A program made the position numbers and the translations under genes. Below the pieces are notes generated by a model. That model made no database searches, was not told the DNA's origin, and saw nothing but the letters and a program-made list of their open reading frames with translations. 30,412 nt of DNA. Source: Enterococcus wangshanyuanii. GTDB taxonomy: Bacteria; Bacillota; Bacilli; Lactobacillales; Enterococcaceae. Positions 8,542-27,419 of this stretch are shown piece after piece. The stretch is taken from positions 1 through 30,412 of the forward strand of contig NZ_CP021875.1 in NCBI RefSeq assembly GCF_002197645.1, written 5' to 3'. Position 1 is the stretch's first letter; each line of letters opens with the position of its first letter.

Positions 8542-9693
8542 TTATTCAAATCCCCACCACTCATTAGTTCCTCCATGGTTATTATTTTCTGAACCTTGAA
8601 TATCTTCTGGTTTTAAATGAATTGTATTACTCCCCCCATTATCTCCAGGTGGTGTAGATTGGCCTCCTGTTGGTGGTGTTTGAGGGGCTTGTTCAGCAGG
8701 TGGCGCTTGGTATTGTGGCTGCTGATATCCTGTGTCTGTTCCTCCTTGCGGCACATAACCACCTGTATCTGTCGCAGCACCGTCACCTGTATAATCTGTA
8801 GTTGCTGCACCTTGATCTGTTTGAACTTGTTCTTGTGCTGCTTCAACGGTTCCAGGACTAGTAACACCATTTTGTGGTTGTTGCATCGAATCAGCTGAAG
8901 CGGCTTCTTTCGCTTCAGACTGTTTTTTTGACTCTTCTGCTTTTTTCTCAATGTCTGTTTTGACCTTAGACAGTTGATCATTTAGAGATTTTTTAGCTTT
9001 TGCATTTTTAATCTTATCTGTCTCTGTTTTAGCTGTATCATAAAGTTTATGGTCAGTTGAAATCACTTTATTTTCTTTAAATATTTTGCTGACGGCTTGT
9101 TTTGCAGTCTCAATTTGCTTTACTTGATTTTCTGCATTTACAATCAAATCATTGATTGCTTTGTCATAAGCCGTTTTAGAGTCTTTTTTGTAATACTCCT
9201 TTTTTGTCGATTCTACTGTTTCCTTTTTAAGATCGTCTACAATTGATAAATCTTTTTTTACAACAGATCCATTCAATGCCGCATTTTCTTTCTCTTGCTT
9301 AAATAATTGGTTAATCGCTGTTTGAGCATCAACTTTCTTTTCCAGTGCCTTTAAAGCTTTTTCGGTGTCTCCAGCTTCCTTGTTGTACTCTTTTAAATCT
9401 ACTTTCTCTGTTTGTTTCCCGATCGATAGACGATCAAATTCTTCACGTAGTGTCTTTACCTGATCTTTAGTAACATTCTTTGCTAGGAAATTATTGTCCT
9501 TATCGTCAAACAGTTTGTTGATCTTTACTTCTAGATCCGTAAGCCCTGTTGTTTTTGTTGTGATTACTTTTTGAGCTTCATCTAGTTTTTGTTTTGACTG
9601 GTTACTAGCATAAACACTACCACCAACTGCTAGTGCTGCGATAACCCCAACACTTGTAATTATTAATTTCGTTTTTTTACTTAACTTTTCCAT
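8542..9693 (-). CDS. Exported coiled-coil protein (Cry1Ac D-VI-like helical repeats) with Gln/Pro/Gly-rich tail
   Basis: The start chosen is ATG 9693 behind TTGGAGG (MEKLSKKTKLIITS), giving 383 residues; an upstream in-frame start lacks an RBS. Residues 8-30 form a hydrophobic segment ending VYASNQ, a signal peptide or signal anchor. Residues 30-270 are almost all helical and charged, made of repeated units with motifs such as VDAQTAINQLF, YDKAINDLIVNAENQVKQIE and AKKSLNDQLSKVKTDIEKK. These resemble the helical repeats annotated in enterococci as toxin Cry1Ac domain D-VI-related; that label implies no toxin activity. The tail (290-383) is rich in Gln, Pro, Gly and Thr and ends NEWWGFE. No LPXTG motif and no lipobox Cys are present. 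It is the last gene before a strong terminator and the frame is intact. Confidence 0.82.
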   Translation of the reverse strand: MEKLSKKTKLIITSVGVIAALAVGGSVYASNQSKQKLDEAQKVITTKTTGLTDLEVKINKLFDDKDNNFLAKNVTKDQVKTLREEFDRLSIGKQTEKVDLKEYNKEAGDTEKALKALEKKVDAQTAINQLFKQEKENAALNGSVVKKDLSIVDDLKKETVESTKKEYYKKDSKTAYDKAINDLIVNAENQVKQIETAKQAVSKIFKENKVISTDHKLYDTAKTETDKIKNAKAKKSLNDQLSKVKTDIEKKAEESKKQSEAKEAASADSMQQPQNGVTSPGTVEAAQEQVQTDQGAATTDYTGDGAATDTGGYVPQGGTDTGYQQPQYQAPPAEQAPQTPPTGGQSTPPGDNGGSNTIHLKPEDIQGSENNNHGGTNEWWGFE

Positions 9694-9715
9694 TTTTAAA
9701 TCCTCCAATTTCTTC

Positions 9716-9862
9716 TCAGTTTGAATATTCATAATACAGATCCATCGCCTTGAACAAGGCATAAACACCTGATAAAACAATGAGTATAAATAATTGATCA
9801 AAATTTATGAGTGACAAAACAATTGCAATAAGTAACGAACCCAACACTTTTATTTGCTTCAT
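9716..9862 (-). CDS. 48-residue membrane protein
   Basis: ATG 9862 (MKQIKVLGSLLIAIVLSL) follows GAGGATG; the longer in-frame start at 9898 has no RBS. The product is almost one continuous hydrophobic stretch with two likely helices separated by NFDQ, and a short polar tail (DLYYEYSN). Function unknown. It lies between two small genes of the same strand and 22 bp before the coiled-coil protein. Confidence 0.55.
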   Translation of the reverse strand: MKQIKVLGSLLIAIVLSLINFDQLFILIVLSGVYALFKAMDLYYEYSN

Positions 9863-9902
9863 TTTTTCACATCCTCGAAAAAAGTCTGACCTGGTCAAAA
9901 AT

Positions 9903-10082
9903 TTATCTCCAATTCCATTTGTAAGGTTTTCTTCTTTTATTTTTGCTCGCTTGAATTTTGAATAATGCGATTTTTTCGTTTGGTTCTAAATTTGTTTCTC
10001 TATGATTCAAAGGAACATATACATCCACTATGATTCCTAATTTTTGATCTACTGTAAGGAACTCTTCGTTTGAACAAACCAT
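9903..10082 (-). CDS. 59-residue basic protein
   Basis: ATG 10082 (MVCSNEEFLTVDQKLG) lies behind a good AAGGAGGAG at 7 nt. The C-terminus is strongly basic and aromatic (KNKRRKPYKWNWR). No family recognised. The middle (VDVYVPLNHRETNLEPNEKI) looks like a small beta domain. Tightly placed between the XRE regulator and a small membrane protein in the same operon. Confidence 0.6.
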   Translation of the reverse strand: MVCSNEEFLTVDQKLGIIVDVYVPLNHRETNLEPNEKIALFKIQASKNKRRKPYKWNWR

Positions 10083-10134
10083 TTGATTCTCCTCCTTATA
10101 TTGATAGTAAAGTATTAAACACTTTTAGTCTATA

Positions 10135-10374
10135 CTAAGCTTCAACATCTTGATTTATTCGTTTAAAAGTAAAAATTTGTTCAATCGGGACTTCAAAAAC
10201 ATCAGCGATATCATGCGCCAGTAAAAGTGAAGGGTTGTAGCGATTCCGTTCTAATTGAATGATCGTTTGACGTGAGACCCCTACTTTATCAGCTAACTCC
10301 TGTTGGGTCATACGTTGCATTGCTCTGTATACGTGAATACTGGATTCAAAACTACTATTCTTTTTCTTCGGCAT
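10135..10374 (-). CDS. XRE-family helix-turn-helix transcriptional regulator
   Basis: A 79-residue single-domain protein. The HTH is at about residues 19-70: RMTQQELADKVGVSRQTIIQ is the classic recognition pair, followed by LERNRYNPSLLLAHDIADVF and a hydrophobic end (VPIEQIFTF). This compact type (YozG/YgzD-like) usually represses its own operon and often neighbours a membrane protein, as here. ATG 10374 has AAGGAG at about 9 nt and overlaps the end of the upstream membrane-protein gene by 20 bp, so the two are co-translated. It could give local control of the middle of the long minus-strand operon. Confidence 0.9.
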   Translation of the reverse strand: MPKKKNSSFESSIHVYRAMQRMTQQELADKVGVSRQTIIQLERNRYNPSLLLAHDIADVFEVPIEQIFTFKRINQDVEA

Positions 10375-10921
10375 AAAGTTCCCACTCCTTATTTAGTAAA
10401 TTCAATTCTTCTTGTGCTTTTTTTATCGCTCGTTTATCTTTTTCAATTCGTTCTGCTAACTCCTTTAGCTCAATGACTAAATAACGATCTGAAAATACGT
10501 AAGAAGTAAACTTTACTACCTCAACAATTACTCCAAGTATCGCTAGGCTAATGATTCCTAAAATCAATAACCACAAGAAGAGTACAATTAAAGTGAAAAT
10601 TACATTTCCAAACAAAGAAAGATATGTTGCAGGCACCATCATATGTACAATATCTGGCTGTTCAAACCCAGAATCGTAAATCATTTTCCCGAAAAGGGCG
10701 AATAATGGAACTACAGCTAGAAGTGGAATCATGTACCATTTTGTTCTCAAAACAAGTTTGCTTCGATCAAAATACCCTAAAAATGGTAACTTCTTTAGGA
10801 GGTTTGTTCTTTTTTCTAGATAAAGAACCTTTTTTGTTTTCCTATCAAGAAGTTTCAAAAGATTTTTCTTTTTTAGCTTATATTCTGCATAATCTATTGA
10901 TTCTTTTACTGATTCAGCCAT
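10355..10921 (-). CDS. Membrane protein with flanking coiled coils (188 aa)
   Basis: Start ATG 10921 (MAESVKESIDYAEYKLKKKN) is behind AGGAG; the longer frame to 11011 lacks an RBS. An N-terminal basic helix (residues 8-45) is followed by a hydrophobic segment (WYMIPLLAVVPLFALFG), then after a loop a long second one (VIFTLIVLFLWLLILGII) probably spanning once or twice. The last 45 residues (ELKELAERIEKDKRAIKKAQ) are a predicted coiled coil facing the cytoplasm. No named family. It is coupled to the XRE regulator downstream. Confidence 0.65.
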   Translation of the reverse strand: MAESVKESIDYAEYKLKKKNLLKLLDRKTKKVLYLEKRTNLLKKLPFLGYFDRSKLVLRTKWYMIPLLAVVPLFALFGKMIYDSGFEQPDIVHMMVPATYLSLFGNVIFTLIVLFLWLLILGIISLAILGVIVEVVKFTSYVFSDRYLVIELKELAERIEKDKRAIKKAQEELNLLNKEWELYAEEKE

Positions 10922-10931
10922 TTTTTCACTC

Positions 10932-11129
10932 CTAACTCTTGTGTGTATTAATTGATATGACTTGATTTTTTTTACGACTACTTGCAAGTAGGTTTTTCTT
11001 CCAAAGTTCATTCACAATCACTCTATTTTGGTGTTCAGAAAATTTTGTTGTGTCGATAATTAACATTTCTTTGTCTCTGTTTTCTTCGAAAAATTGACGA
11101 ATAAAACGTCTAATTCTAAATTTTTTCAT
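10932..11129 (-). CDS. 65-residue basic protein
   Basis: ATG 11129 (MKKFRIRRFIRQFFEEN), two codons after a GTG that overlaps the stop of the preceding gene (GTGTGA). GGAAG lies upstream. Arg/Lys-rich N-terminus and a central motif KEMLIIDTTKFSEHQNRVI. No family recognised. It is packed between two genes (3 bp and 11 bp gaps), which supports it being real. Confidence 0.55.
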   Translation of the reverse strand: MKKFRIRRFIRQFFEENRDKEMLIIDTTKFSEHQNRVIVNELWKKNLLASSRKKNQVISINTHKS

Positions 11130-11131
11130 TT

Positions 11132-11794
11132 TCACACCACTTCCATTGTCATTGCTTCAACATTACAAGTTTTATAACTGCTTATTCCATCCGCATCTTC
11201 GATCGTAAAATGATCTACTTGAAAATTCATTACCACATTTTTTATGTATTCTTTGTCTGTTTTCACTTCACTCATATCATGTTCAAAACTTCCTCCACTA
11301 GCTAGATAGATCGAGAAGATCTCTTCTTGGACCAAGCTGCCATCACCAGCAGCTTCTAATCTATCCTTTTTTTTGGTGTACTCTTCACTTGAAATTAACT
11401 TGCATTTGTTCTCTTGAGTGATTATTTCGATACATTTTTTGTATTTTAAAGGAAAACTTAGTTTTTCTCTGATTAACCCTACCGAATCATATGCGTAGAT
11501 ATCTATCTCTTTAGAAAAGACGTGCTCATCATATACCAGAGTACGGTTAGCTGAACATTCAATCAAGGTCAGCACTTGTTGTTTTCGGCGCCTACTTCTA
11601 AGTTGGTTCCATAAAGTTAGTAGAGATATTAAGATAATTATACTTCCTAGTAGAAACATAATTACGAATCCAAAACTTGGCCCATGTTCTTCAAATTCGA
11701 CCTCTTCTCCAAAAGTTGGCTTAAGTACAATTGGTTGCGTGTTTCTTGGTCGTAAAATAATGAAATTGTCTTTGTCATTTTGTTCATCCTTCAT
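11132..11794 (-). CDS. Single-pass membrane protein (220 aa)
   Basis: The start is taken at ATG 11794 (MKDEQNDKDNFIILRPRN) behind GGGGAGAAG. An alternative GTG at 11998 would add 68 residues rich in Cys and Arg (FCDDRSKISGFARVYVYGCY) with no good RBS. One membrane helix is at about residues 40-62 (FGFVIMFLLGSIIILISLLT) followed by an RSRRRK stop-transfer cluster. The roughly 150-residue C-terminal domain is mixed alpha/beta and probably cytoplasmic by the positive-inside rule. No family recognised. It lies in the run of tightly spaced minus-strand genes. Confidence 0.6.
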   Translation of the reverse strand: MKDEQNDKDNFIILRPRNTQPIVLKPTFGEEVEFEEHGPSFGFVIMFLLGSIIILISLLTLWNQLRSRRRKQQVLTLIECSANRTLVYDEHVFSKEIDIYAYDSVGLIREKLSFPLKYKKCIEIITQENKCKLISSEEYTKKKDRLEAAGDGSLVQEEIFSIYLASGGSFEHDMSEVKTDKEYIKNVVMNFQVDHFTIEDADGISSYKTCNVEAMTMEVV

Positions 11795-12158
11795 TTCTTC
11801 TCCCCCTACTCGATTTCTTCTAAACACTTTTTGTTTACCAGTTTTAACAGGACGAAATAATTTGCACGTTTTATAGCAACCGTAAACGTAAACTCTAGCA
11901 AAGCCGGATATTTTGCTTCTATCATCGCAAAATCTTTGCATGTATGTGACACGCCCGTCTCTCGACACTGGCAATTTCTCAAATCCTTTATAAGTCACGC
12001 TGATTGATTTGAGGGGTCGTCCTTAAACCCAATAAAACTATTCAATTGGTTAAAAGATTTCGATACAGTCAATCCGTTATCGATTGACCGCATTAGAACC
12101 TTTTGATTTAAATATATTTGCTAAAAAACTAGCAAACAAAAAGTGTTTAGCCTCTCTC

Positions 12159-12488
12159 TTAGTGCGTCAATTGTTCATAGAATACTAGTATTGATTCCAC
12201 TTTTCCATCAAAATTATTAAAAATCACATATAGTGCAGCACAGCCAATAACAATAAAACAAACCACTTTAGCATGCACTGGAATGCTAGTTTGCTCAATA
12301 GCAGCACATAAAAGTCCGCCTGCTATAACAACTAAATAGATTGCTATCGTCATAATGACTGATAAGAAAAACACGTCACTCAACATTAACCATTTAAAAA
12401 TGAAATAGCTTACTAATAATATTCCTACAGCTGAAAACACCCACCAAAAAATATCTCTTGCTTTCAGTGTTTTTAACTTATCTACCAT
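12159..12488 (-). CDS. Polytopic membrane protein (109 aa)
   Basis: ATG 12488 (MVDKLKTLKARDIFWW) behind TAGGGGGG. Four hydrophobic segments can be read: IFWWVFSAVGILLVSYFIF, VFFLSVIMTIAIYLVVIAG, a short GGLLCAAIE region, and VVCFIVIGCAALYVIF. No charged or catalytic motifs, no named family. A gap of about 160 bp (12000-12158) follows. It contains no gene I can support, only two short inverted repeats (GTCAATC...GATTGAC near 12070-12090 and TTTGCTA...TAGCAAA near 12118-12137), so the operon may be attenuated or re-initiated here. Confidence 0.6.
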   Translation of the reverse strand: MVDKLKTLKARDIFWWVFSAVGILLVSYFIFKWLMLSDVFFLSVIMTIAIYLVVIAGGLLCAAIEQTSIPVHAKVVCFIVIGCAALYVIFNNFDGKVESILVFYEQLTH

Positions 12489-12520
12489 AACAAATCCCCC
12501 CTAAATGTATTGGTCCATGT

Positions 12521-12859
12521 TCAAAAACGCTGTAATAACTCAATTTCAACATCATTTTCTAATAACCAATTGATTTCTGTTTCCCAAGCAGCCCCTTTTA
12601 GTACTTCTTGATTGTAGATATAGGTCTGAAAGTCTTGTGGAATCACAATTAAACCATAGTCTTTGGTTTCCACTACTAATGCAGTAAATACAGTTTGATC
12701 AATGCCACAGTTCCTTTCATGAGAAATCACTCGAACAACATCGCCATGCTTGAAGTCTGCTAGTTCTGTCAACACTTTCCCCTGATTTTTATTCATAGTT
12801 TCTGTATACTTTTTCCTATGACTAGCCATCAACTGACTAATAGATTCTAAATTATCCAT
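12521..12859 (-). CDS. Unrecognised 112-residue protein, translationally coupled
   Basis: ATG 12859 (MDNLESISQLMASHRKK) shares bases with the TGA of the preceding gene (TGATG) and has AAAGGAG 10 nt upstream, a typical coupling arrangement; the longer frame to 12931 lies inside the upstream gene. The N-terminal 30 residues are helical and basic. The rest (KHGDVVRVISHERNCGIDQT, VFTALVVETKDYGLIVIPQD) looks like a small beta-barrel. No family recognised. Confidence 0.62.
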   Translation of the reverse strand: MDNLESISQLMASHRKKYTETMNKNQGKVLTELADFKHGDVVRVISHERNCGIDQTVFTALVVETKDYGLIVIPQDFQTYIYNQEVLKGAAWETEINWLLENDVEIELLQRF

Positions 12860-13296
12860 CAACAGGTTGCTCCTTTGTTTTTCTTTTTGCCATACTTCTG
12901 AGAACAATACCTTCTTTCTCTTTTGATCCACCTGTAATACTCCAGTGCTTCATGTTCGTAGTAGCATTTAAGAGCATTACTCATTGGTTCAGGTTTTAAA
13001 GCATGAAAATTACTCCAAATACTATCGTCCTTCGCTAATAAAGACTCCTTTTCAGCAGGTCTAACTGCTACGATCTTTCCTTCAGGATCAAAAACTAATT
13101 TAATTTGATCATAAATTTTTAAGATCTCAACCTCTTTCCCAAAATCATTGAATTGCTGTACTCCGTTCTCATAGGTCACCATTTGACGGAATGCTTTTCC
13201 TTTACAGAGCCTATAAAAATGATGATTGAATAACTGTACCCTGCCACTTTCAACCCGTAAAAGTATTTTTGGTGTAAGTATCATTCTCTGCTTCAT
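12859..13296 (-). CDS. First structural gene of the peptide-controlled operon (145 aa, unrecognised)
   Basis: Start ATG 13296 (MKQRMILTPKILLRVE) behind AAAGGAGGAAG; an upstream in-frame ATG at 13368 sits within the terminator hairpin and is rejected. The N-terminal part is beta-rich (RVESGRVQLFNHHFYR, EILKIYDQIKLVFDPEGKIV). The C-terminus is basic (RWIKRERRYCSQKYGKKKNK). It lies directly after the terminator at 13341-13381, so its expression should depend on readthrough from the inhibitor-peptide promoter. In pAD1 this slot holds the positive regulator TraE1, but I see no clear similarity and make no such assignment. Confidence 0.65.
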   Translation of the reverse strand: MKQRMILTPKILLRVESGRVQLFNHHFYRLCKGKAFRQMVTYENGVQQFNDFGKEVEILKIYDQIKLVFDPEGKIVAVRPAEKESLLAKDDSIWSNFHALKPEPMSNALKCYYEHEALEYYRWIKRERRYCSQKYGKKKNKGATC

Positions 13297-13332
13297 AACT
13301 TCCTCCTTTCTGACCAAATGACAGGTTAACGG

Positions 13333-13381
13333 AAAACAAAAAAGGTGTGGTGTATGCTTAAACTGCATACACTACACCTTT
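13333..13381 (-). terminator. Terminator between the inhibitor-peptide gene and the operon
   Basis: A 17-bp stem with one G-U pair (AAAGGTGTAGTGTATGC on the minus strand), a 7-nt loop, and on the minus strand a T-rich tail (TTTTTTGTTTT). It is 37 bp before the ATG at 13296. Leftward transcripts starting at the inhibitor promoter near 13865 must pass it, as with IRS1/IRS2 in pCF10 or TTS1/TTS2 in pAD1. Confidence 0.85.
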
Positions 13382-13506
13382 GTAATAGCAATTCCCTACA
13401 TTTCGTATACATCCATTCAAAGAAAAAATAATTTTATCAGAACTTTGGGGGCTTTGATATTATTGAAAGTATTGAATTAATACTGTATTTTTTCTTAGAA
13501 AGTTGA

Positions 13507-13622
13507 TATAATACAAAGTTGTAGCACTGCTACGACAAAAGAGTTGTACAGTTCAAGCGTACCTTGAATTGTTTCATCTCCCTCTAGGATTACCAGTCCT
13601 ATGGAGACGACTCTTTTTTTGT
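13507..13622 (+). ncRNA. Plus-strand small RNA, about 100 nt, antisense to the inhibitor transcript leader (mD/Anti-Q analogue)
   Basis: An extended -10 (TGATATAAT, TATAAT at 13507-13512) predicts a start near 13519. The RNA would fold into GTAGCACTGCTAC (13521-13533), TTCAAG..CTTGAA (13552-13568) and a long hairpin TCTCC-CTC-TAGGA..TCCTA-T-GGAGA (13577-13607). AAAGAGTTG (13538 on) also pairs with CGACTCTTT just before the T7 run ending near 13620. It is complementary to leftward transcripts between the peptide gene and the operon, the place where pAD1 makes mD RNA. No peptide ORF is inside. The -35 is weak (CTGTAT). Confidence 0.75.
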
Positions 13623-13688
13623 TTCCCGCTAACCTCACACCTAAAATTACTTAGAGTTTGATTAGCTCAATTAAATTTTTTGTAGTTG

Positions 13689-13717
13689 TTGGAATTAATA
13701 AGAATTTTTGTTATAAT
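13689..13717 (+). promoter_or_regulatory. Strong plus-strand promoter pointing at the peptide gene (PX analogue)
   Basis: TTGGAA (13689-13694), 17-bp spacer, TATAAT (13712-13717) with an extended TG two bases upstream. Transcription starts near 13724 and runs antisense to the end of the inhibitor gene and, on readthrough, on to the prgX-like gene. In pCF10 the prgX promoter also lies on the opposite strand downstream of prgQ. Confidence 0.8.
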
Positions 13718-13734
13718 GAAACTAATAAAGCTTT

Positions 13735-13773
13735 AACTAGATCACTCTTCTACGGTTTGTTCTAGTTTTTTTT
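13735..13773 (+). terminator. Plus-strand terminator ending a ~50-nt antisense RNA
   Basis: AACTAGA (13735-13741) pairs with TCTAGTT (13761-13767) and is followed by a T run to 13773 that overlaps the inhibitor stop codon. With the promoter at 13689-13717 it defines a very short RNA (about 13724-13773) with readthrough into prgX, the same logic as Anti-Q of pCF10. The minus strand has no T tract, so leftward transcripts pass. Confidence 0.7.
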
Positions 13774-13849
13774 ATGCAACAAGTGTAAGTGAAAATGCTA
13801 CTGCAAGAGATAATAAAGCTTTTATTTTTTCTTTTTTGTTAAAATTCAT
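13772..13849 (-). CDS. Pheromone-inhibitor-type peptide precursor (25 aa)
   Basis: ATG 13849 is 5-6 nt after AGGAGGGG. The product starts MNFNKKEKIKALLS, continues with a hydrophobic core and ends AFSLTLVA-stop. This is the layout of enterococcal inhibitor precursors (21-23 residues, basic N-terminus, signal-like core, last 7-8 residues released by Eep-type processing). The end resembles iAD1 (LFVVTLVG), iPD1 (ALILTLVS) and iAM373 (SIFTLVA) without matching any. Likely mature forms are AFSLTLVA or FSLTLVA. Transcribed divergently from a PrgX-family gene. Function inferred from family and position: exported peptide that binds the PrgX-like protein, keeps the operon off and titrates self-pheromone. 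Confidence 0.85.
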   Translation of the reverse strand: MNFNKKEKIKALLSLAVAFSLTLVA

Positions 13850-13871
13850 AATATCCCCTCCTACTGGTTAT

Positions 13872-13900
13872 ATAATAGCATATAAAAAAAGCATTATCAA
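13872..13900 (-). promoter_or_regulatory. Promoter of the inhibitor-peptide operon (PQ analogue)
   Basis: On the minus strand TTGATA (13900-13895), 17 bp, TATTAT (13877-13872) preceded by TGC (extended -10). Predicted start near 13865, giving a leader of about 16 nt before the peptide ATG. Confidence 0.78.
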
Positions 13901-13915
13901 CGTTTTTTTATTATA

Positions 13916-13933
13916 AGTAAAAACCATTTTACT
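13916..13933. promoter_or_regulatory. Candidate operator for the PrgX-like regulator
   Basis: Perfect 7-bp inverted repeat AGTAAAA-ACCA-TTTTACT beginning 16 bp upstream of the -35 of the inhibitor promoter, between the two divergent genes. PrgX and TraA bind DNA in this interval in pCF10 and pAD1. Binding here is inference. Confidence 0.5.
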
Positions 13934-14071
13934 ATTATGCCTATTTTAGTTTCAAAAAAGAACAATTTCGCTTTTTATTTATACACTGTTTCGATAGTAA
14001 TCACTTAGTTTTTTTTAAAGTTGATGTTTTATGTGCTAAAATTAGAGCTTTTTAGAGGAGGAGAATATTTA

Positions 14072-14989
14072 TTGTTTAACTCAAAAATTATTAGAGATAT
14101 TAGAAAAGAATTTAGAATCTCTCAAGTTGATTTGTATAAAGATATCTTATCTCGTTCTAGTTACTACAAACTTGAAAAAGGAGAAAAAGATATTACTATT
14201 GGTGAACTATCTCTCATTTGTGAAAGGCTCAGAATGAGACCATCCGAGTTATTATACAGGACAGACTTTACTCGCCTTGAATCACTCCCATATTGGGAAA
14301 ATAAGATCAATTTACCTAACCTTACACAAGACAGAGAATTATTTTTTAAGCAGTTTAATATTTACAAAAAAACGAGATTTGATAGTATAGGGGATTACAG
14401 CTTATACTTGGGTTTATTAGTATTAGGTATATTAAGCGGACTAATTACAGACTACATGCCTAGCAAAAAACACCTACGTTCTTTAGAAAAAATGTACTCT
14501 AACAGAAAAATTTTTTTTGCTATAGACTATGAAGTATTAGGTAATTTAACATTTTTTCTACCACAAATAGACATTAATTTCATGACTTCAAAAATGTTTC
14601 CAATTACTCAATCTGAGGGAGAAGTTTATGATCTTTGTGCTCAAAATGCTTTGAAAAATCTTATATCTTCAAGCATTCATGAAAAAAAATACGATCAATG
14701 GAAAGTCTATAATGAGTATTTTGACAACCTTCGTAGTATTGAACATTTTAATATCTCGACAACCGTAAATTTAGAAGTGGTTTATCTAGAACATCTAAAA
14801 GAATTCTATGAAACAAGAGATATCAACGCATTTCTTGAAGCATCTAAAATAGCGAATTTATTCCTAAAATTAGGATACAAACAAATCCACAAACTTTTGG
14901 TTGAAGAAATTAGTAAAATCGCCATCAACGAGAATTTTCAAATACCTAAAGAAATAGCTGTTTATACACAAGCTTACTCAATAAACTAA
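14072..14989 (+). CDS. prgX: PrgX/TraA-family peptide-sensing transcriptional regulator
   Basis: The start is TTG 14072 (MFNSKIIRDIRKEFRISQ), 8 nt after GAGGAGGAG; the upstream ATG 14021 has no RBS. The 305 residues compare with about 317-319 in PrgX and TraA. N-terminal HTH (about 5-60; SQVDLYKDILSRSSYYKLEK), then an all-helical peptide-binding/dimer region. Blocks recalling PrgX include MYSNRKIFFAIDYEVLGNLT (PrgX FFGIDYEIVSNL) and HKLLVEEISKIAINENFQIP-KEI near the C-terminus (PrgX SLVEELTKISAKEKFTPPKEV). The family represses the inhibitor-gene promoter when bound to inhibitor and releases it when bound to the cognate pheromone. Intact frame; ends in a bidirectional terminator. Confidence 0.92.
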   Translation: MFNSKIIRDIRKEFRISQVDLYKDILSRSSYYKLEKGEKDITIGELSLICERLRMRPSELLYRTDFTRLESLPYWENKINLPNLTQDRELFFKQFNIYKKTRFDSIGDYSLYLGLLVLGILSGLITDYMPSKKHLRSLEKMYSNRKIFFAIDYEVLGNLTFFLPQIDINFMTSKMFPITQSEGEVYDLCAQNALKNLISSSIHEKKYDQWKVYNEYFDNLRSIEHFNISTTVNLEVVYLEHLKEFYETRDINAFLEASKIANLFLKLGYKQIHKLLVEEISKIAINENFQIPKEIAVYTQAYSIN

Positions 14990-15030
14990 AAAGACAGTGC
15001 CTCTAGTTGATTGAAAGGCACTGTCTTTTT
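14988..15030. terminator. Bidirectional terminator between prgX-like gene and OppA-like remnant
   Basis: Near-perfect 15-bp stem AAAAAGACAGTGCCT / AGGCACTGTCTTTTT with a 13-nt loop, with T runs on both strands. It serves both convergent genes, whose stop codons overlap its ends. Confidence 0.9.
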
Positions 15031-15160
15031 AGTTTATTTTTTCTGCATTTTTAAAGTCAAAATTTGTTCCAAAAGAATATTGTTCAATTTTTTTAAACTC
15101 TGTTTTTCTCATAATAACAACTGCTTGTTGAAATAACGGCACTATAGGTTCATCAGTTAA
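15029..15160 (-). pseudogene. C-terminal remnant of OppA-like peptide-binding lipoprotein (TraC/PrgZ type)
   Basis: The last 43 codons of a minus-strand gene remain, cut exactly at the Tn3 left end (15161). The sequence LTDEPIVPLFQQAVVIMRKT followed by EFKKIEQYSFGTNFDFKNAE has the form of the end of OppA-family oligopeptide-binding proteins (VP-aromatic-Q near the end and a final FG.(N/D)(F/Y)DFK block). Pheromone plasmids carry such a protein (TraC, PrgZ) near prgX/traA to recruit pheromone to the host Opp permease. Identification rests on a short stretch and on context. The truncated protein would be non-functional, so pheromone uptake would depend on host OppA or another copy. Confidence 0.6.
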
Positions 15161-15253
15161 GGGGTTCAGGTATCAGTGGAACGAAACTTTACGGTATAAA
15201 GTCGAATGTTTTGGTTCTTCTCTATAATAATGTTTGTTTTTCTAAATTTGGTC

Positions 15254-15362
15254 TGTCAAAAAGTATACTTTTTGATAAAGTCTTTTCTTATGCAAAACCA
15301 TGTGTCAAAACCTATGTTTTTCACTTTTGATATGTGTCATAATTATTAATGACATTTTGATA
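15254..15362 (+). promoter_or_regulatory. res site of the transposon, with tnpR promoter region
   Basis: Repeated resolvase boxes TGTCAAAA/TTTTGATA: a near-palindrome TGTCAAAAAGTATACTTTTT-GATA (15254-15277) centred on TATA, the crossover-type subsite, then TGTCAAAACC...TTTTGATA (15303-15332) and TGTCATAATT...ATTTTGATA (15335-15362). Three inverted pairs upstream of tnpR is the usual res layout. Confidence 0.75.
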
Positions 15363-15382
15363 TATGAAAGGAGAAAATAAAC

Positions 15383-15997
15383 ATGCTTTTTGGCTATGCT
15401 AGAGTTTCCACTAAAGAACAAAATTTAGATCGACAAATACAGAAGTTTAATGATTTAGGTATTGAATCTCGTTATATATTTGTCGATAAACAATCAGGTG
15501 CTGAGTTTGATCGTCCACAGTATCAACTATTACTTCATATGCTTCGTTCTGGAGATATTGTTTACTTAGACTCTTTAGATCGTTTAGGGAGAAACTATTC
15601 TGGTGTAATTGAAGAATGGAAGTATATTACAAGAAAGATAAAAGCAGATATTATTGTTCTAGAAAATTCAGAATTATTTGATAGTAGAAAGTTTAAAACT
15701 ATGGGGGACATTGGTCTTTTATTAGAAGATCAGTTTTTGAGCATGCTTTCTTATGTAGCAGATCAGGAACGAAAGAAGAGCAAACTGCGTCAAACTGAAG
15801 GGATTGAAATTGCAAAATCTGCTGGTACGGTCTTTGGTAGACCTAAATTGGCAATAACAGAAGAATTCAAAAGACAGTATTTTAGTTGGAAAAATGGGGA
15901 GCAAACAGCAACTGATACTATAAATAAACTAGAATTGTCCCCAAGCACATTTTATCGTCGAGTAAAAGAGTTCGAACAAGAAATGGCAGGTGACTAA
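15383..15997 (+). CDS. tnpR: Serine resolvase TnpR
   Basis: A 204-residue serine recombinase. Catalytic Ser9 is in YARVSTKEQNLDRQ; conserved DRLGRNY (about residues 68-74) and the arm-helix region follow. The C-terminal HTH (about 160-195: ITEEFKRQYFSWKNGEQTAT...LSPSTFYRRVKEFE) binds the res subsites just upstream. It resolves the cointegrates made by TnpA. ATG is behind AAAGGAG. The stop directly abuts the tnpA ATG, so both are made from one message, and TnpR probably represses this promoter. Confidence 0.95.
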   Translation: MLFGYARVSTKEQNLDRQIQKFNDLGIESRYIFVDKQSGAEFDRPQYQLLLHMLRSGDIVYLDSLDRLGRNYSGVIEEWKYITRKIKADIIVLENSELFDSRKFKTMGDIGLLLEDQFLSMLSYVADQERKKSKLRQTEGIEIAKSAGTVFGRPKLAITEEFKRQYFSWKNGEQTATDTINKLELSPSTFYRRVKEFEQEMAGD

Positions 15998-18991
15998 ATG
16001 CCTGTACAGATAATGAGTAAAGAACAAAAACAGTCTTTTGGATCTTATGCGGGCCTTCCTTCCGATGAACAATTAGTGAAATACTTTCATTTGGACGATT
16101 ATGACAAATCAATTATTAAAACTTTGCGAAACGATAGTACTAAAATTGGTTTTGCAGTACAGTTAGGGACTGTACGATTTTTAGGAACATTTCTTTCTGA
16201 TTTAACAAATGTTCCTAATGAAGTAATAGAGTACATGGCAGAGCAGTTGTCTATTGAAAGTCGTATGTTCTCTTACTATACAAGAATTCCTACAATCAAG
16301 CAGCATGCACTCATGATTCAGGAACTATACTCTTACAGGCAGTTCCATGACCAAGCCGTTTTAGATTATTTAGAGCAGTGGATATATGAAGGTGCTTGGT
16401 ATTCTACAGAGCAAACAACTCTTCTTGCTGATCGTTTCTTGAATAAGTGTATAAACGAAAAAATAATTCTCCCAGGTCTTACTACATTCGAACGGTTTAT
16501 ATCGCGCATTATAGACGCTGTAACCAAAGATATAGAGCAAGCAATTGTAAATATTCCTAGTAAGAAGGAAATTGAACGAATCAATCAATTGACGCTGTTT
16601 TTTATGGAAGGAAAAACGTCTTTGTTTACAGTAAAGTTGGACGCTTTAAGAGAACCTCTAAAAGAACCGTCTTATTATGAGATTAAACGTGGATTTCAAA
16701 GAATAAAAGAATTTGCTTCTTTTTCAGTTGATTTTTGGGATTTCAGCCAGATTCCTAAAGGGAAGATAAAATTATATGCTGAGTATACAGCTAAAGCCAA
16801 ATCGCAAAGTATTCAGCGTATGCCTGAAAGTAGACGTTTAGCTTACCTAGTTTCATTTATTGCAGAGTATCGATCAGTTGCTATGGACGAATTATTATTA
16901 GCATTAGAAAAGTATTTTACTAGTATTATCAACCTTGCAAAGAAAAAGGAACAGCAAGAACGACTCCGATCACTAAAAGATTTGGACAATGCAGCAGCCA
17001 TGCTGTCTCATATTGTAGAGGATCTGATTGACGAACAAACTCCACCTGAGAAGCTGTTAGATTATGTTTTAGAGCTACGCGAGAAACAAGAGATAGTAGC
17101 AGCTGTGTCAAAAGTAAAACGTATTGTGAGTTCGGATAAAGAACCTGTGGCAATCAAAGAATTATTAAACTCATTTTCAAAATTTAAAAGGTTACTTCCG
17201 GATATTCTTGCTCATATTCCTTTTTTAGTTAGTGATAAAGATAGTCCAGTAGCTTATATTTGGTCTTTTTTAAGAGATAAAGGAGATCTATTTCTTCGAT
17301 ATCAAGATTTTGAAAAAATACAAGACTATCTGCCAACCAAGTGGCATAATTTTATCGATAAAAATCAAGCATATGCTAATAAAGGAATCATAATTGCTGC
17401 TATGGAACTTTTTATAAAAGGCATAAAGACACATACTGTTTATGTCCCTTATAGTCATAGATATAATGATCCATTGCAAAATCTAATACCTAAAAATGTA
17501 TGGAATGAGCAAAGAAAATCCTTTGTAAATCAGTTAGGTCTTGCAGAGGACGGAGCTATTGCTGTAGAAGATTTTAAAATCAGTTTAGAAATGTCTTATA
17601 GAGAAACACTAAAAAACTGGAATAATAGCAACATGGCTAGGATAGAGGAAAAAAATGGACAAACAGAATTGATTATTAGTCCGCTAAAAAGACAAAGTTT
17701 ATCTAAACCACGTCTTATTGAGGAAATTCATAGAAATCTTCCCATTGTTGACCTTCCTGAAATATTATTAGAGGTAAATCAGCGACTAAGGCTTACAGAG
17801 TGTTTTTCACATTTAAATGAAAATCGATCGCGTATGAAAGAGCTGGATATAAGTATCTTAGCAGTGTTATTAGCTGAAGCGTGCAATATAGGGCTGTCAC
17901 CCGTTGCTAAGAAGAGTACAGAAAGTTTAAAAAATGACCGCTTATCCTACGTCAATCAAAACTATATACGATTAGATACTTTAACAGCAGCCAATAATAA
18001 GGTCGTAGACGCCTATCAGAAACTTGCTTTACCTTATATATGGGGAACAGGAGATATGGCTTCAGCGGACGGTATACGCTTTACTACACCAAAGAAATCT
18101 CTACATTCAGGACGGAACCCTAAATATTTTGGTCGAGGTAAAGGGATCACATACTATAACTTTCTATCTGATTCCTATGTTGGATTTCATGGTATGGTTA
18201 TTTCTGGGACGATTAGAGATTCAGTCTATTTGCTTGAAGGACTGTTAAATCAAACAAGTACATTAACACCTAGTCAGATAATGACTGATACTGCTGGATA
18301 CAGTGATCTTGTATTTGGATTATTTGGAATACTAGGTTTTCAATTTAGCCCCCGAATAGCTAAAGCAAACGAAACAAAAATATGGAGAATAGACAAAAAT
18401 GCTAATTACAAAATTCTGAACGAACATTCAAAAAATACTATAAATACAACAATTATAGAGCAAGAGTGGGATGATATCTTACGAATTGCAGGTTCTCTAA
18501 AATCAGGAACCGTCCAAGCCAGCTATCTTATTCGTGCTCTCCAACATCAAGGAAATCCTACTCCATTGGGGCGTGCATTAATTGAAGTTGGAAAAATATT
18601 TAAAACAAAACATCAACTCAGATATCTATCTGATGAAGAATACGCACGAAATATTCTAGAACAACTGAATAAAGGAGAATCTCGCCATAGCTTGTATAGA
18701 AAAATATGCTATGGTAAAAATGGACGAATCTATCAAAGCTATTTTGATGGTATGGAAAACCAATTAAACGCTTTAGGACTTGTTGCAAATATAATTATTT
18801 ATTGGAACACGCTTTATATGGAAAAAGCTATAGAACAACTTCAGGAAGCTAATTCAGAGAACCAAATACAAGAAGAAGTTCTTCAATTCTCTTCCCCTCT
18901 AGTATCAGAACACATTAATTTCATGGGGAAATATTCTTTCAAATATAATGAGCAATTAAACGAAGGAGAATTTCGTCCCTTAGGACAATAA
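15998..18991 (+). CDS. tnpA: Tn3-family transposase TnpA
   Basis: 997 residues, the normal length for the family, and no frameshift. N-terminal DNA-binding domain (about 1-300), then the RNase H-like DDE core: ASADGIRF (first Asp, about 690), MTDTAGYSD (second Asp, about 762) and the Glu in LGRALIEVGKIFKTKHQLRY (about 860). It catalyses replicative transposition, acting on the 32-bp ends described. The start ATG immediately follows the tnpR stop, so translation is coupled. Confidence 0.97.
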   Translation: MPVQIMSKEQKQSFGSYAGLPSDEQLVKYFHLDDYDKSIIKTLRNDSTKIGFAVQLGTVRFLGTFLSDLTNVPNEVIEYMAEQLSIESRMFSYYTRIPTIKQHALMIQELYSYRQFHDQAVLDYLEQWIYEGAWYSTEQTTLLADRFLNKCINEKIILPGLTTFERFISRIIDAVTKDIEQAIVNIPSKKEIERINQLTLFFMEGKTSLFTVKLDALREPLKEPSYYEIKRGFQRIKEFASFSVDFWDFSQIPKGKIKLYAEYTAKAKSQSIQRMPESRRLAYLVSFIAEYRSVAMDELLLALEKYFTSIINLAKKKEQQERLRSLKDLDNAAAMLSHIVEDLIDEQTPPEKLLDYVLELREKQEIVAAVSKVKRIVSSDKEPVAIKELLNSFSKFKRLLPDILAHIPFLVSDKDSPVAYIWSFLRDKGDLFLRYQDFEKIQDYLPTKWHNFIDKNQAYANKGIIIAAMELFIKGIKTHTVYVPYSHRYNDPLQNLIPKNVWNEQRKSFVNQLGLAEDGAIAVEDFKISLEMSYRETLKNWNNSNMARIEEKNGQTELIISPLKRQSLSKPRLIEEIHRNLPIVDLPEILLEVNQRLRLTECFSHLNENRSRMKELDISILAVLLAEACNIGLSPVAKKSTESLKNDRLSYVNQNYIRLDTLTAANNKVVDAYQKLALPYIWGTGDMASADGIRFTTPKKSLHSGRNPKYFGRGKGITYYNFLSDSYVGFHGMVISGTIRDSVYLLEGLLNQTSTLTPSQIMTDTAGYSDLVFGLFGILGFQFSPRIAKANETKIWRIDKNANYKILNEHSKNTINTTIIEQEWDDILRIAGSLKSGTVQASYLIRALQHQGNPTPLGRALIEVGKIFKTKHQLRYLSDEEYARNILEQLNKGESRHSLYRKICYGKNGRIYQSYFDGMENQLNALGLVANIIIYWNTLYMEKAIEQLQEANSENQIQEEVLQFSSPLVSEHINFMGKYSFKYNEQLNEGEFRPLGQ

Positions 18992-18997
18992 TCACAC

Positions 18998-19031
18998 AGC
19001 TATTTATCTAAAAAAGATAGATAGCTCTTTT
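18998..19031 (+). terminator. Terminator after tnpA
   Basis: Stem AGCTATTTATCT / AGATAGATAGCT with one G-U pair, a short loop and CTTTTTATT, starting 7 bp past the tnpA stop. Confidence 0.75.
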
Positions 19032-19057
19032 TATTGTTCGTGTTTTAACCCCTACCG

Positions 19058-19192
19058 TAAAATTTCGTTCCATTGTTCCGAGAGAAAACCTCTGTAAAAT
19101 GAGTAAGTTCTCATAATTAAATTTAGAAACGTTGATTTTATAGGGTTTACAAATTCATGTAAGAAATCTTAGAGTAAAATTTCGTTCCATTG
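19058..19192. repeat. Internal duplicate of the transposon end
   Basis: The 18-mer TAAAATTTCGTTCCATTG occurs at 19058-19075 and again at 19175-19192, where it is the inner part of the right inverted repeat. The inner copy lacks the terminal GGGGTTC and is followed by TTCCGAGAG. The 118 bp between the copies holds no gene. Confidence 0.7.
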
Positions 19193-19205
19193 ATACGTGA
19201 ACCCC

Positions 19206-19562
19206 GATTCATTGGCAAAAAGTGACGTTAAAAAAATGCCAAAAAATATTGAGCAAATCATATTTTTTGGTCACTCATTAAGTGTTGCTGATTATTCCTA
19301 TTTTCAATCAATCTTTGACTACTACAATATCTATGATAGTGATGTGGATCTTATTTTCTATTACGTAAATTATTCAAAGAATGCTTTTCCTCAGTGTTTA
19401 GAGGCGATTACGAAATTGATCAAAAGGTATGGAGAAACGCTAGATAATAAGGATCATGGAAAAAACTTGTTGCATAAGCTTAGTCTTGAATGCAGGCTAA
19501 AAGTAAAAGAGATCCAGATTGAGTATGACGAAGAAACCAATCTGATAAAGTCGATACAATGA
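19206..19562 (+). pseudogene. C-terminal remnant of AbiH-like abortive-infection protein
   Basis: About 118 residues of open frame continue out of the transposon end; the GTG at 19197 lies inside the inverted repeat, so it is not a native start. The motif EQIIFFGHSLSVADYSYFQS matches the (I/F)FGHSL..(A/T)D..YF block typical of the AbiH phage-exclusion family near its C-terminus, and the remainder (VDLIFYYVNYSK...KLIKRYGE) fits the family end. The 5' two-thirds is missing. Its loss is due to the Tn3 insertion and adjacent deletion. Non-functional as it stands. Confidence 0.7.
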
Positions 19563-19570
19563 AAAAAATC

Positions 19571-19614
19571 AAAAGAGTTAAAAGCACTTATGACATGTTT
19601 TTAACTCTTTTTTT
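19571..19614. terminator. Bidirectional terminator
   Basis: AAAAGAGTTAAAA pairs with TTTTAACTCTTTT around a loop of about 15 nt, with T-rich tails on both strands. It separates the AbiH remnant (+) from the convergent zinc-ribbon gene (-). Confidence 0.8.
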
Positions 19615-19636
19615 CATTTTTATTATTAGTTGTTTG

Positions 19637-20107
19637 TTACATTCGGATAATGAGTCTAGTCATTTTATCTCTGTTGTTCTCAGCAAGTGACTGCTCAAAC
19701 TTGTTGACCTGAATACTTTTTTTCTTCAGCAAGTTATCAGAGATCGACAACGGGAATGTTCCTTCTCTCTCCAGTAGAATATTTTCGATGGTATATACTT
19801 TCTTTTGGAAGAACGTCAGACGTTCCTGGTCTTTTGCTCTGAAGTATTTATCTTTTGCTTTTCTTGCTGCACGCAAAAGATAGTAAAGAGTGATCGTTTT
19901 CTCTTTAAGCAATGTCTCAGTTGGTCGCGACATAAGCTCAAAAATCATTGTTTCGAAGTCGTCGATAATTGGAATGCTATCGACCATTTGATGTGGGCGT
20001 TCCTGATTGAAACATACTTCTTCCGGAGAAAAAGTTATGCTGCAGTATGAGCAGGTCAAGTGTTGATCTAGATCCGTTCCGCAGTATTTGCATGTTGCAT
20101 TTTCCAT
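19637..20107 (-). CDS. Zinc-ribbon protein (156 aa), unknown function
   Basis: The N-terminal zinc ribbon has Cys pairs C6-C9 (CKYC) and C19-C22 (CSYC), then a helical, basic domain without known motifs (LLKEKTITLYYLLRAARKAK). ATG 20107 follows GGAGGAAATAC. It is the last gene of the first repeat-headed cassette. Zinc ribbons of this size often bind nucleic acid or serve as adaptors; nothing more specific can be said. Confidence 0.65.
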   Translation of the reverse strand: MENATCKYCGTDLDQHLTCSYCSITFSPEEVCFNQERPHQMVDSIPIIDDFETMIFELMSRPTETLLKEKTITLYYLLRAARKAKDKYFRAKDQERLTFFQKKVYTIENILLEREGTFPLSISDNLLKKKSIQVNKFEQSLAENNRDKMTRLIIRM

Positions 20108-20379: not shown

Positions 20380-20709
20380 CTACTTGATCTCCTTTAATTT
20401 TATTCTGACTTCCTCTACAGCAATCGGGTCCAAGCTGAGAACATTTTTTAGTAAATCACGACCAGCAAATATAATGCTGCCGGTAAATGTTTCAATGCGA
20501 TCTTCCCAGCGAATAGTGATGGTTTCTTTTGCTTGATCAGGAAGATACAATCCGTGAAAGACAGTGAGTGTTTTACTAAGATCCATTGAAAATAAATTTG
20601 TTGTACCAAGAAGCATACTAATGTCGGTCAAGGGCTCAAAAGAGTAGTAATATTCAGTTTGTACTTCACCATTTACTTTTTTTGCGACTATTAGTTTACC
20701 TGGTTCCAT
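20380..20709 (-). CDS. First gene of cassette A (109 aa, unrecognised)
   Basis: Start ATG 20709 (MEPGKLIVAKKVNGEV) directly behind TAGGAGG; the longer frame to 20733 is inside the leader. The product is beta-rich with alternating hydrophobics (TITIRWEDRIETFTGSIIFA) and a charged C-terminus. It lies about 35 bp after repeat copy 1 in the minus direction, so its leader is shared with the repeat. Confidence 0.6.
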   Translation of the reverse strand: MEPGKLIVAKKVNGEVQTEYYYSFEPLTDISMLLGTTNLFSMDLSKTLTVFHGLYLPDQAKETITIRWEDRIETFTGSIIFAGRDLLKNVLSLDPIAVEEVRIKLKEIK

Positions 20710-20743
20710 AAGAATTCCTCCTAAGTCATGCATGAGACCTTCC

Positions 20744-21267
20744 CTTCAGACATGTTTTATTTTTTGTTTGATTTGACCGGCAAATACCATAGGAGAAGCA
20801 ATTTGCAAGGGCGTACAGCTGCACCAATTTATAATTGGCTGCAGGTGTAGGTGTATCTTCCCTTGCAAATGTGAGCGGAGCCTATGGTATAGGCAACGAA
20901 GTTGCCGAAAAAGGTCGAACAAAAAATAAACACTGTCTGTGGTTTAAAAGGGCCCCCGATTGGCGCAGCCAAGTGGGGTGAGGGACGACGCAGGCGGCCC
21001 TCATAACTAAAGAGCGGTCAGCTGGTGTAACCAGATGATGAAAGAAGTCTAGATAGCGAAGCGTCAAAGGAAGAGAACGAAGGCGAAGCGAACCGAGAGA
21101 ACGACTGAATCTAGAGTTGTTTCAAGCGCAGCATGAGCCCCAGGGCGAATGCATACCACGAAGTGGGCTCTTGTCGACTTGCGTAACGCACGGCGACTAT
21201 GATAAGGGCGAGCTGCAAGCACGCCTAAACTCGATCGTTGACGACCTGAAGGGAGTGATCGTGTTTT
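20744..21267. repeat. Structured repeat copy 1 (candidate large non-coding RNA)
   Basis: 524 bp, visibly GC-richer than the flanks. Nested pairings: TTTATTTTTTGTT near 20757 with AACAAAAAATAAA near 20920; ATACCATAGG with CCTATGGTAT; TTTGCAAGGG with CCCTTGCAAA; GGCAACGAAGTTGCC; TTGGC-GCA-GCCAA (20960-20972); GAGGG..CCCTC (20980-21002); CTGGT-GTA-ACCAG (21022-21034); GAGCCC..GGGCTC (about 21133-21173). The open frames here are short, differ between copies and are not credible genes. The element lies just upstream of a minus-strand cassette. The transcribed strand is not settled. Confidence 0.8.
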
Positions 21268-21280
21268 CTCCGTAAGGAGG

Positions 21281-23300: not shown

Positions 23301-23331
23301 AAAATTCCTCCTATGCGCCTGAGAGGTGTTA

Positions 23332-23854: not shown

Positions 23855-23855
23855 A

Positions 23856-26141: not shown

Positions 26142-26144
26142 TTT

Positions 26145-26556: not shown

Positions 26557-26590
26557 ATGAAGACTCCTCCTGTGCGCCTGAAATGAGTCA

Positions 26591-27043: not shown

Positions 27044-27092
27044 CTAAATGATTAATTGATCATTGGCATACAAAAACGCGATCCTACAAGAA

Positions 27093-27387: not shown

Positions 27388-27419
27388 ATAGAGTATAAGA
27401 TGATGAGAGGAAGATGTTT

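What the first reader, a model, noticed from the sequence alone, without database searches (positions are those of the whole stretch)
13333..14989. Pheromone-response control locus of a type I cannot match to a described plasmid
Seen: a PrgX/TraA-like gene (14072-14989, +) and, divergent, a 25-codon gene with strong RBS ending AFSLTLVA, with a promoter, palindrome, two plus-strand RNA units and a terminator arranged as in pCF10 and pAD1. Known: this arrangement controls conjugation by ratio of self-inhibitor to recipient pheromone. Inference: the window is the regulatory head of a pheromone-responsive plasmid with its own specificity. The operon behind it is not prgA/prgB-like but begins with unrecognised small proteins.
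Basis: partly seen in the sequence, partly recalled or inferred. Interest (0 to 1): 0.95.

Follow-up and report, generated by a model that had tools for sequence, protein, structure and literature searches.

The report
New-specificity pheromone switch of an Enterococcus plasmid
A plasmid of a bacterium that is likely an Enterococcus carries a mating-control region of the known sex-pheromone type with its own small peptide gene (ending AFSLTLVA), and it is predicted to be switched on by a nearly identical peptide that would be released from a lipoprotein of related enterococci.

Summary
Window 14072-14989 (+) encodes a PrgX-family regulator (Pfam E 2e-29, solved PrgX E 4.5e-44), inside the PrgX clade. 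A divergent 25-codon gene ends AFSLTLVA; Rfam calls Anti-Q RNA at 13518-13613 (+). The closest plasmid regulators are 42% identical. The peptide has no match in 72,556 plasmid records; the iCF10 precursor matches 98.

The locus lies on a repeated unit of about 77 kb in contig C3, with TraB, a Tn3-split TraC, a primase-type replication gene and a pLS20-like transfer module. The window joins it to a second plasmid through a Tn3 copy.

Candidate pheromone: a chromosomal lipoprotein signal peptide ending LFSLTLAA before Cys, 6 of 7 identical to FSLTLVA, exact in 12 of 22 genus genomes, own included. Chance would give 0.08-0.42 such matches per genome, so the pairing is likely, not shown.

Verdict: new member of a known kind with an unlisted specificity. 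A second plasmid couples a similar Q/anti-Q stretch to a different RRNPP regulator.

The parts
14072..14989 (+). PrgX-family regulator (305 aa, TTG start)
   Evidence: Pfam PF22459 E 2.1e-29 and HTH_3; PDB PrgX E 4.5e-44 over residues 5-302; PrgX clade
13772..13849 (-). 25-codon peptide gene MNFNKKEKIKALLSLAVAFSLTLVA; predicted inhibitor AFSLTLVA or FSLTLVA
   Evidence: the same finder returns the known inhibitors from pCF10, pTEF1, pAM373 and pTEF2, with extra chance ORFs in several of those loci and none in the window
13855..13862 (-). ribosome binding site AGGAGGGG
   Evidence: sequence
13872..13900 (-). predicted PQ-type promoter TTGATA-17-TATTAT with TG before the -10
   Evidence: similar CGTTGATAA...TATGCTATTAT at the same place in the pCQ20-2 locus (by eye)
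13518..13613 (+). Anti-Q RNA (RF00388), T run 13614-13620
   Evidence: fold z -7.63; alignment with 8 other loci
13504..13512 (+). extended -10 TGATATAAT, predicted promoter of Anti-Q (and by analogy of prgX)
   Evidence: sequence; not listed by the scan
13689..13773 (+). possible second short plus-strand RNA unit (TTGGAA-17-TATAAT, weak terminator)
   Evidence: promoter; terminator z -1.66 only
13341..13381 (-). strong leftward terminator (Q RNA 3' end, IRS-like)
   Evidence: MFE -22.5, z -6.0, 0 of 200 shuffles as good
12859..13293 (-). first operon gene; weakly TraE-like
   Evidence: NCBIfam TraE_Enteroc 29.4 bits, below cut-off 100; 34-37% matches in 6 E. faecalis plasmid records
12521..12931 (-). 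second operon gene; 53% over 85 residues to a pAM373 ORF near its control region
14985..15038 (.). hairpin between the convergent prgX and traC ends
   Evidence: z -7.8
15029..15157 (-). last 42 codons of a TraC/PrgZ-like gene cut by the Tn3; the N-terminal piece is at C3:16160 to about 17373
   Evidence: C piece matches the C-terminal ends of EFD32pB (E 5e-7) and pCF10 (E 2e-4) TraC proteins; N piece SBP_bac_5 E 1e-57, 37-45% to four plasmid TraC proteins
15160..19210 (+). Tn3-family transposon: resolvase 15383-15997, transposase 15998-18991; junction between two plasmids
   Evidence: NCBIfam transpos_Tn3 794 bits; copies in C3 and C4

Best explanation
Window 13341-14989 encodes a PrgX-family regulator, a divergent 25-codon peptide gene and an Anti-Q RNA in the order found in pheromone-responsive plasmids, and together they likely act as a pheromone switch for plasmid transfer, with LFSLTLAA from a chromosomal lipoprotein as its predicted inducer. 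Inferred working: the regulator with the plasmid's own AFSLTLVA/FSLTLVA would hold the leftward promoter at 13900-13872 shut; Anti-Q RNA would pair with the short Q transcript and end it early; when the host or recipient peptide (L)FSLTLAA displaces the inhibitor, Q RNA would outrun Anti-Q and transcription would run into the TraE-like gene and the transfer operon. Shown here: gene families, arrangement, RNA family, plasmid context, and the presence of the lipoprotein signal in the same genome. Inferred: peptide processing, binding, repression, and the pheromone pairing.
For: PrgX family by profile, solved-structure sequence and tree. Anti-Q RNA above gathering score, and the same family at the matching place in pTEF1, pTEF2 and four other PrgX-type loci. 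The peptide finder recovers four known inhibitors from their plasmids. TraB above the NCBIfam cut-off (309 against 178 bits), split TraC, replication initiator and ParA on the same plasmid. A chromosomal SBP_bac_5 lipoprotein MKLKKSFAFGFITLFSLTLAAC in the same genome; among 17 lipoprotein-like ORFs in 400 kb of the chromosome the best other match is 4 of 7. In a further pattern search the other two of three hits hold an in-frame stop; in a looser one, 30 of 59 hits were translated and only this one is a lipoprotein signal. The octapeptide before Cys is exact in 12 of 22 genus genomes, own included.
Against: Likeness of inhibitor and pheromone is a weak guide: scored the same way, the true pheromones of pCF10, pAD1, pPD1, pOB1 and pAM373 rank 1, 4, 16, 7 and 3 of 21. 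A match of 6 of 7 is expected by chance 0.08 times per genome (own sample) to 0.42 times (paralogue-rich sample). The pattern was drawn up after seeing the peptide's likeness to cAD1. In G005, the only other genome of 105 with PrgX over the cut-off, no comparably close lipoprotein turned up. The TraC/PrgZ gene is split by a Tn3 with about 100 residues unaccounted for. Operator sites were not identified. E. termitis and two other close relatives have FSLSLAA instead.
Confidence: 0.7

Rival explanations
1. The locus is a working PrgX-type switch, but the inducer is another lipoprotein-derived peptide; the LFSLTLAA likeness is chance or shared signal-peptide bias.
For: Known pairs are often no more alike than decoys; 0.08-0.42 chance matches of this quality per genome; only a sample of the lipoproteins was listed (17 in 400 kb of 3.84 Mb).
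Against: The score of 26 exceeds every known pair (7-23) and the next decoy by 12; targeted whole-genome patterns gave no rival lipoprotein among the hits translated.
Confidence: 0.25
2. The locus is a decaying or crippled copy: Tn3 insertion and rearrangement have removed the pheromone-binding TraC protein, and the control head no longer serves transfer.
For: traC is in two pieces either side of the Tn3 with about 100 residues unaccounted for, and no 5-bp target duplication is seen (by eye); several Tn3 copies and composite contigs.
Against: Regulator, peptide gene, promoter, Anti-Q and terminator are present without a break and identical in C2 and C3. By a review (PMC7117660, section 10 part 1) mutants without PrgZ/TraC are still inducible at fourfold higher pheromone.
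Confidence: 0.15
3. The peptide is an autoinducer (SHP/Rgg-like quorum signal) rather than an inhibitor, so the plasmid counts its own donors.
For: RRNPP regulators of the Rgg type use short hydrophobic peptides as activators (recalled); a related plasmid in the strain has an Rgg_C-type regulator with its own peptide.
Against: The window's regulator matches PrgX_C_TPR and not Rgg_C, falls in the PrgX clade, and its peptide gene is divergent and paired with Anti-Q as in known inhibitor loci.
Confidence: 0.07

Closest known systems
pCF10 prgX-prgQ control region (cCF10/iCF10)
   Same: PrgX-family regulator, divergent short peptide gene, TraB/PrgY and TraC/PrgZ genes on the same plasmid; Anti-Q RNA is the family named after this system (recalled; the pCF10 stretch itself was not run through Rfam here)
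   Different: Regulator 32% identical; different peptide; no prgA/prgB match; VirD4- and VirB4-like genes match pLS20, not pCF10, at 1e-5; replication gene of primase type (PriCT_1) where pCF10 is annotated with replication initiator protein A; TraC split by Tn3
pCQ20-2 / pE1123 / LR962543 PrgX loci of Enterococcus plasmids
   Same: Closest plasmid regulators (42% each), same arrangement, Anti-Q found in pCQ20-2 and LR962543
   Different: Peptides end SVLTVTLIS or GVLTVALTS; pCQ20-2 and pE1123 carry sea1/prgA
pAD1/pTEF1 traA-iad (cAD1 LFSLVLAG / iAD1 LFVVTLVG)
   Same: Candidate pheromone LFSLTLAA is 6 of 8 identical to cAD1 as printed in PMC7117660; first operon gene weakly TraE-like
   Different: Regulator only 21% identical to pTEF1 TraA
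Proteins P0002 and P0003 (unnamed public contigs)
   Same: 88% and 86% identical regulators
   Different: Their DNA and peptide genes could not be read with these tools

Membership tests
PrgX/TraA pheromone-responsive control locus | HTH plus PrgX C-terminal TPR receptor inside the PrgX clade | tested here: met
PrgX/TraA pheromone-responsive control locus | Divergent short peptide gene ending in 7-8 hydrophobic residues | tested here: met
PrgX/TraA pheromone-responsive control locus | Anti-Q (mD) RNA opposite the Q transcript, with terminator | tested here: met
PrgX/TraA pheromone-responsive control locus | TraB/PrgY and TraC/PrgZ genes on the same plasmid | tested here: met
   TraC is present but split
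PrgX/TraA pheromone-responsive control locus | Cognate pheromone from a chromosomal lipoprotein signal peptide | tested here: inconclusive
   candidate LFSLTLAA
PrgX/TraA pheromone-responsive control locus | Two PrgX operator sites (XBS1, XBS2) | not tested
   only general repeats were listed
PrgX/TraA pheromone-responsive control locus | Peptide-dependent transcription and transfer | not testable with these tools
   needs an experiment
pCF10/pAD1-type aggregation operon | prgA (surface exclusion) and prgB (aggregation substance) | tested here: not met
   no match of 71 ORFs from C3:22500-88000 at 1e-5
Rgg/SHP systems | Rgg_C receptor domain in the window's regulator | tested here: not met
   tree

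The most novel reading that the evidence does not exclude
The plasmid carries an undescribed pheromone specificity in which its inhibitor (FSLTLVA) copies, but for one residue, the signal-peptide end (FSLTLAA) of an OppA-type lipoprotein kept across a clade of enterococci; and the Q/anti-Q RNA switch is a portable cassette, because a second plasmid in the same strain couples a 76%-identical copy of it to a regulator of a different RRNPP clade (Rgg_C type) that reads in the same direction as its own 27-codon peptide gene, so one cell would hold two separate peptide-gated transfer circuits.
Probability: 0.4. Interest if true: 0.7.

Novelty: new member of a known kind. Interest (0 to 1): 0.55.

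Why it matters
A review lists five pheromone/inhibitor pairs as identified (PMC7117660 Table 2). Here a PrgX locus from a likely relative of E. termitis and E. ureasiticus gives a candidate pair outside that list, in a genome where both halves can be read, and the two peptides are short enough to synthesise and test directly. PrgX over the family cut-off was found in only 2 of 105 Enterococcaceae genomes, own included, so examples are few in that set. If the second, Rgg_C-type plasmid also works through Q/anti-Q, the RNA switch can be studied as a module separate from its receptor.

Tried and rejected
Close plasmid relatives: no megablast match for window 9000-20000. A distant search with window 12500-15150 hit 133 records, none covering 80% of the query; the 40 rows listed are short stretches of 3-6% of the query over the Anti-Q region at 71-79%, and a further 85 records at 80-90% were not listed. 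Genome contigs and viral-contig scans with the regulator found no relative. The protein search misses relatives that share few exact words (the 42% plasmid regulators are not in its list of five), so it does not bound the family. The pheromone test in G005 (inhibitor ending ALNLVLIG) gave 8 pattern hits; of the 6 checked by script one is a clear lipoprotein signal, with 4 of 7 residues, no better than background. I considered a wholly new transfer module and dropped it: relatives of the MobL relaxase are in 1069 plasmid records, and LR962005.1 appears in both the PrgX-like and the MobL lists. Three chromosomal outgroup rows were extracted wrongly and left out of the tree by the program (23 of 26 rows used). 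In one search I gave 59 of the 80 fetched loci; 11 gave no signal peptide and about 10 more were misread by the script, all outside the ten closest loci. A few of the 17 lipoprotein-like ORFs may not be lipoproteins. Of the 59 hits, 29 were not translated. Paper searches for the four peptide strings returned 0 papers; searches for Rgg with anti-Q or with conjugative plasmids listed no title on an Rgg-type enterococcal pheromone plasmid. I read only sections 9, 10 (part 1) and 22 of PMC7117660 and passages of PMC9765709, and saw the other papers as listings.
Full report
What is there. Its closest named relatives by one lipoprotein are E. termitis and Enterococcus sp. 5H (91%) and E. ureasiticus (89%), so the host is likely an Enterococcus of that group. 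Window 1-19210 matches contig C3 (99.8%), and 9000-15159 matches it exactly; window 15160-25513 matches another part of C3, and contig C4. The two stretches overlap in a Tn3-family transposon (15160-19210). C3 begins to repeat after 76.8 kb. I read this as a plasmid of about 77 kb holding the control locus, joined through the Tn3 to a second plasmid, either in the cell or by the assembler. Window 25514-30412 was not compared with the rest of C3.

The regulator. Window 14072-14989 gives 305 residues with HTH_3 and PrgX_C_TPR. It aligns over residues 5-302 with solved PrgX (E 4.5e-44). In a tree of 23 regulators it lies in an 11-row set with pCF10 PrgX (96/98) and next to the pCQ20-2, pE1123 and LR962543 regulators (93/97), to which it is 42% identical. 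pTEF1 TraA and pAM373 lie outside that set on long branches. All 249 plasmid records with a relative are under 60% identical. In the large protein collection five proteins reached 1e-10, one of them the window's own; the others are 88, 86, 60 and 50% identical, but that search misses relatives sharing few exact words. PrgX_C_TPR over its cut-off was found in 2 of 105 Enterococcaceae genomes, the own one and G005.

The peptide gene and RNAs. A 25-codon gene runs divergently from 13849 to 13772 behind AGGAGGGG and ends AFSLTLVA. As a control, the same finder returned the iCF10, iAD1, iAM373 and SLTLILSA peptides from pCF10, pTEF1, pAM373 and pTEF2, along with some chance ORFs (the published peptides are in PMC7117660). 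The 25-residue peptide has no match in 72,556 plasmid records at E 10, while the 23-residue iCF10 precursor matched 98. Rfam finds Anti-Q RNA at 13518-13613 (+). The Q terminator and Anti-Q hairpins fold far better than shuffles; the second short plus-strand unit does not clearly do so.

Context. On C3, reading towards the locus, lie ParA, a primase-type replication initiator (PriCT_1), TraB (TIGR00261, 309 bits against 178) and the N-terminal piece of a TraC-like peptide-binding lipoprotein. The Tn3 separates that piece from its last 42 codons at window 15157-15029. The N piece aligns to about residue 402-412 of plasmid TraC proteins and the C piece from about residue 502, so about 100 residues are unaccounted for; no target duplication is seen (by eye). 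On the other side the operon starts with a weakly TraE-like gene and one with a pAM373 relative, followed further on by an LPXTG protein with SpaA folds, a glucosaminidase, a CHAP protein and a leucine-rich-repeat protein. The VirD4-like, VirB4-like, pLS20_p028-family and MobL proteins match pLS20 at 24-30% and have no pCF10 match at 1e-5; the VirB4 family call is below NCBIfam's cut-off (170 against 590 bits), the p028 call above it (288 against 150). prgA and prgB were not found.

The candidate pheromone. A pattern of roughly the form [LF]-F-S-L-x-L-[AG]-x-C, drawn from the peptide and its likeness to cAD1, hit the own genome twice; one hit is a lipoprotein signal, MKLKKSFAFGFITLFSLTLAAC, on an SBP_bac_5 protein. 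(L)FSLTLAA and (A)FSLTLVA share 6 of 7 residues, or 6 of 8. In 20 chromosomal stretches (400,000 of 3,842,361 bases) 17 lipoprotein-like ORFs were recognised, the best other match being 4 of 7. Two further patterns gave no other lipoprotein signal: one had 3 hits, two with in-frame stops; the other had 59, of which 30 were translated. The expected number of chance matches this good is 0.08 (own sample) to 0.42 (sample rich in related proteins). As a check on the method, the true pheromones of five known plasmids rank 1, 4, 16, 7 and 3 of 21, so likeness alone does not prove a pair. LFSLTLAAC is exact in 12 of 22 genomes of the genus and in 12 of 105 of the family, none outside the genus. Among the ten loci with the closest orthologues (76-91%), five named species have FSLTLAA, three have FSLSLAA and two have other ends.

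Mechanism. By analogy with pCF10 (PMC7117660 sections 10 part 1 and 22) the regulator with its inhibitor would repress the promoter at 13900-13872, Anti-Q would end the Q transcript early, and the host or recipient peptide would relieve both. None of this has been measured here. The loss of an intact TraC would be expected to raise the pheromone threshold, not to abolish the response.

A related second locus. Contig C5 (64 kb) carries a stretch 76% identical to window 13319-13640, with an Anti-Q match just below threshold (41.2 against 45 bits, E 0.004), and shares operon DNA at 85% over 1.6 kb. Its regulator (C5:23307-24239, -) has Rgg_C (33 bits against 27; NCBIfam's RGG_Cterm is below its cut-off), lies in a separate five-row clade (100/100), and reads in the same direction as a 27-codon peptide gene. 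Relatives occur on 12 Enterococcus plasmid records, with one weak Carnobacterium hit. Anti-Q in these Rgg_C-type loci is weak or missing: 0 of 6 at the gathering score; with E-values, 2 of the 4 tried (C5 and pEfVSI48_1, 37.3 bits) against none in pGTC2 and pEFS108_4. By sequence the nearest solved structure of the C5 regulator is still PrgX (E 9e-8), so 'Rgg type' rests on Pfam and the tree. An analysis of RRNPPA systems reports PrgX only on plasmids and Rgg sometimes in prophages (PMC9765709, passages).

Judgement. The locus is a PrgX-type control region with an unlisted peptide: a new member of a known kind. The candidate pair makes it testable with two synthetic peptides. The Q/anti-Q stretch with two different receptor types in one strain is the most novel part and is only partly tested.

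Noticed in passing
G000 contig C5:22572-24239 (loci L008, L044): Second pheromone-like control region: Q/anti-Q stretch 76% identical to the window's, 27-codon peptide gene MKKHKNILGTVIICVLTMAPIFPNLLG co-directional with an Rgg_C-type RRNPP regulator, with an inverted repeat GTTGTC-N6-GACAAC upstream of the peptide gene.
   Followed up: partly
plasmids EFD32pB, pEFS108_4, pEfVSI48_1, pGTC2, PLM3 plasmid1 (loci L147, L161, L148, L160, L162): Related regulators, each followed by a 26-29-codon peptide gene with a shared C-[VI]-[LVI]-T-[LM] core; 12 Enterococcus plasmid records have such a regulator.
   Followed up: partly
window 15160-19210; C3 17369-21420, 94150-98200, about 183300-187355; C4: Same Tn3 element at junctions of two plasmids in all four combinations of flanks, none with a 5-bp target duplication by eye: cointegrate and resolution products, or assembly joins.
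   Followed up: partly
C3:98346-98777 and 187501-187932: Truncated Rgg_C-like protein (20 bits, below the cut-off of 27) next to the Tn3 and a second replication-type gene: perhaps remains of another control region on the second plasmid.
   Followed up: partly
window 1588-4140 (-): Group II intron with reverse transcriptase between the glucosaminidase and CHAP genes of the operon.
   Followed up: no
window 5900-8385 (-): LPXTG adhesin with SpaA folds appears as several ORFs in the window, while the C3 copy reads as one 880-residue ORF; C2 may carry sequence errors.
   Followed up: no
window 20705-21279, 23296-23866, 26565-27004: Three copies of a roughly 420-575-bp repeat, 85-95% alike, between small genes of the second plasmid.
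   Followed up: no
G005:C31 (locus L048): Another PrgX locus (35% identical) with a divergent peptide ending ALNLVLIG; its cognate pheromone was not found.
   Followed up: partly
C3:16160-17373 and C1:about 1.774 Mb: The plasmid's TraC piece is 43% identical to the very lipoprotein whose signal peptide is the candidate pheromone, so receptor and precursor may be paralogues.
   Followed up: no
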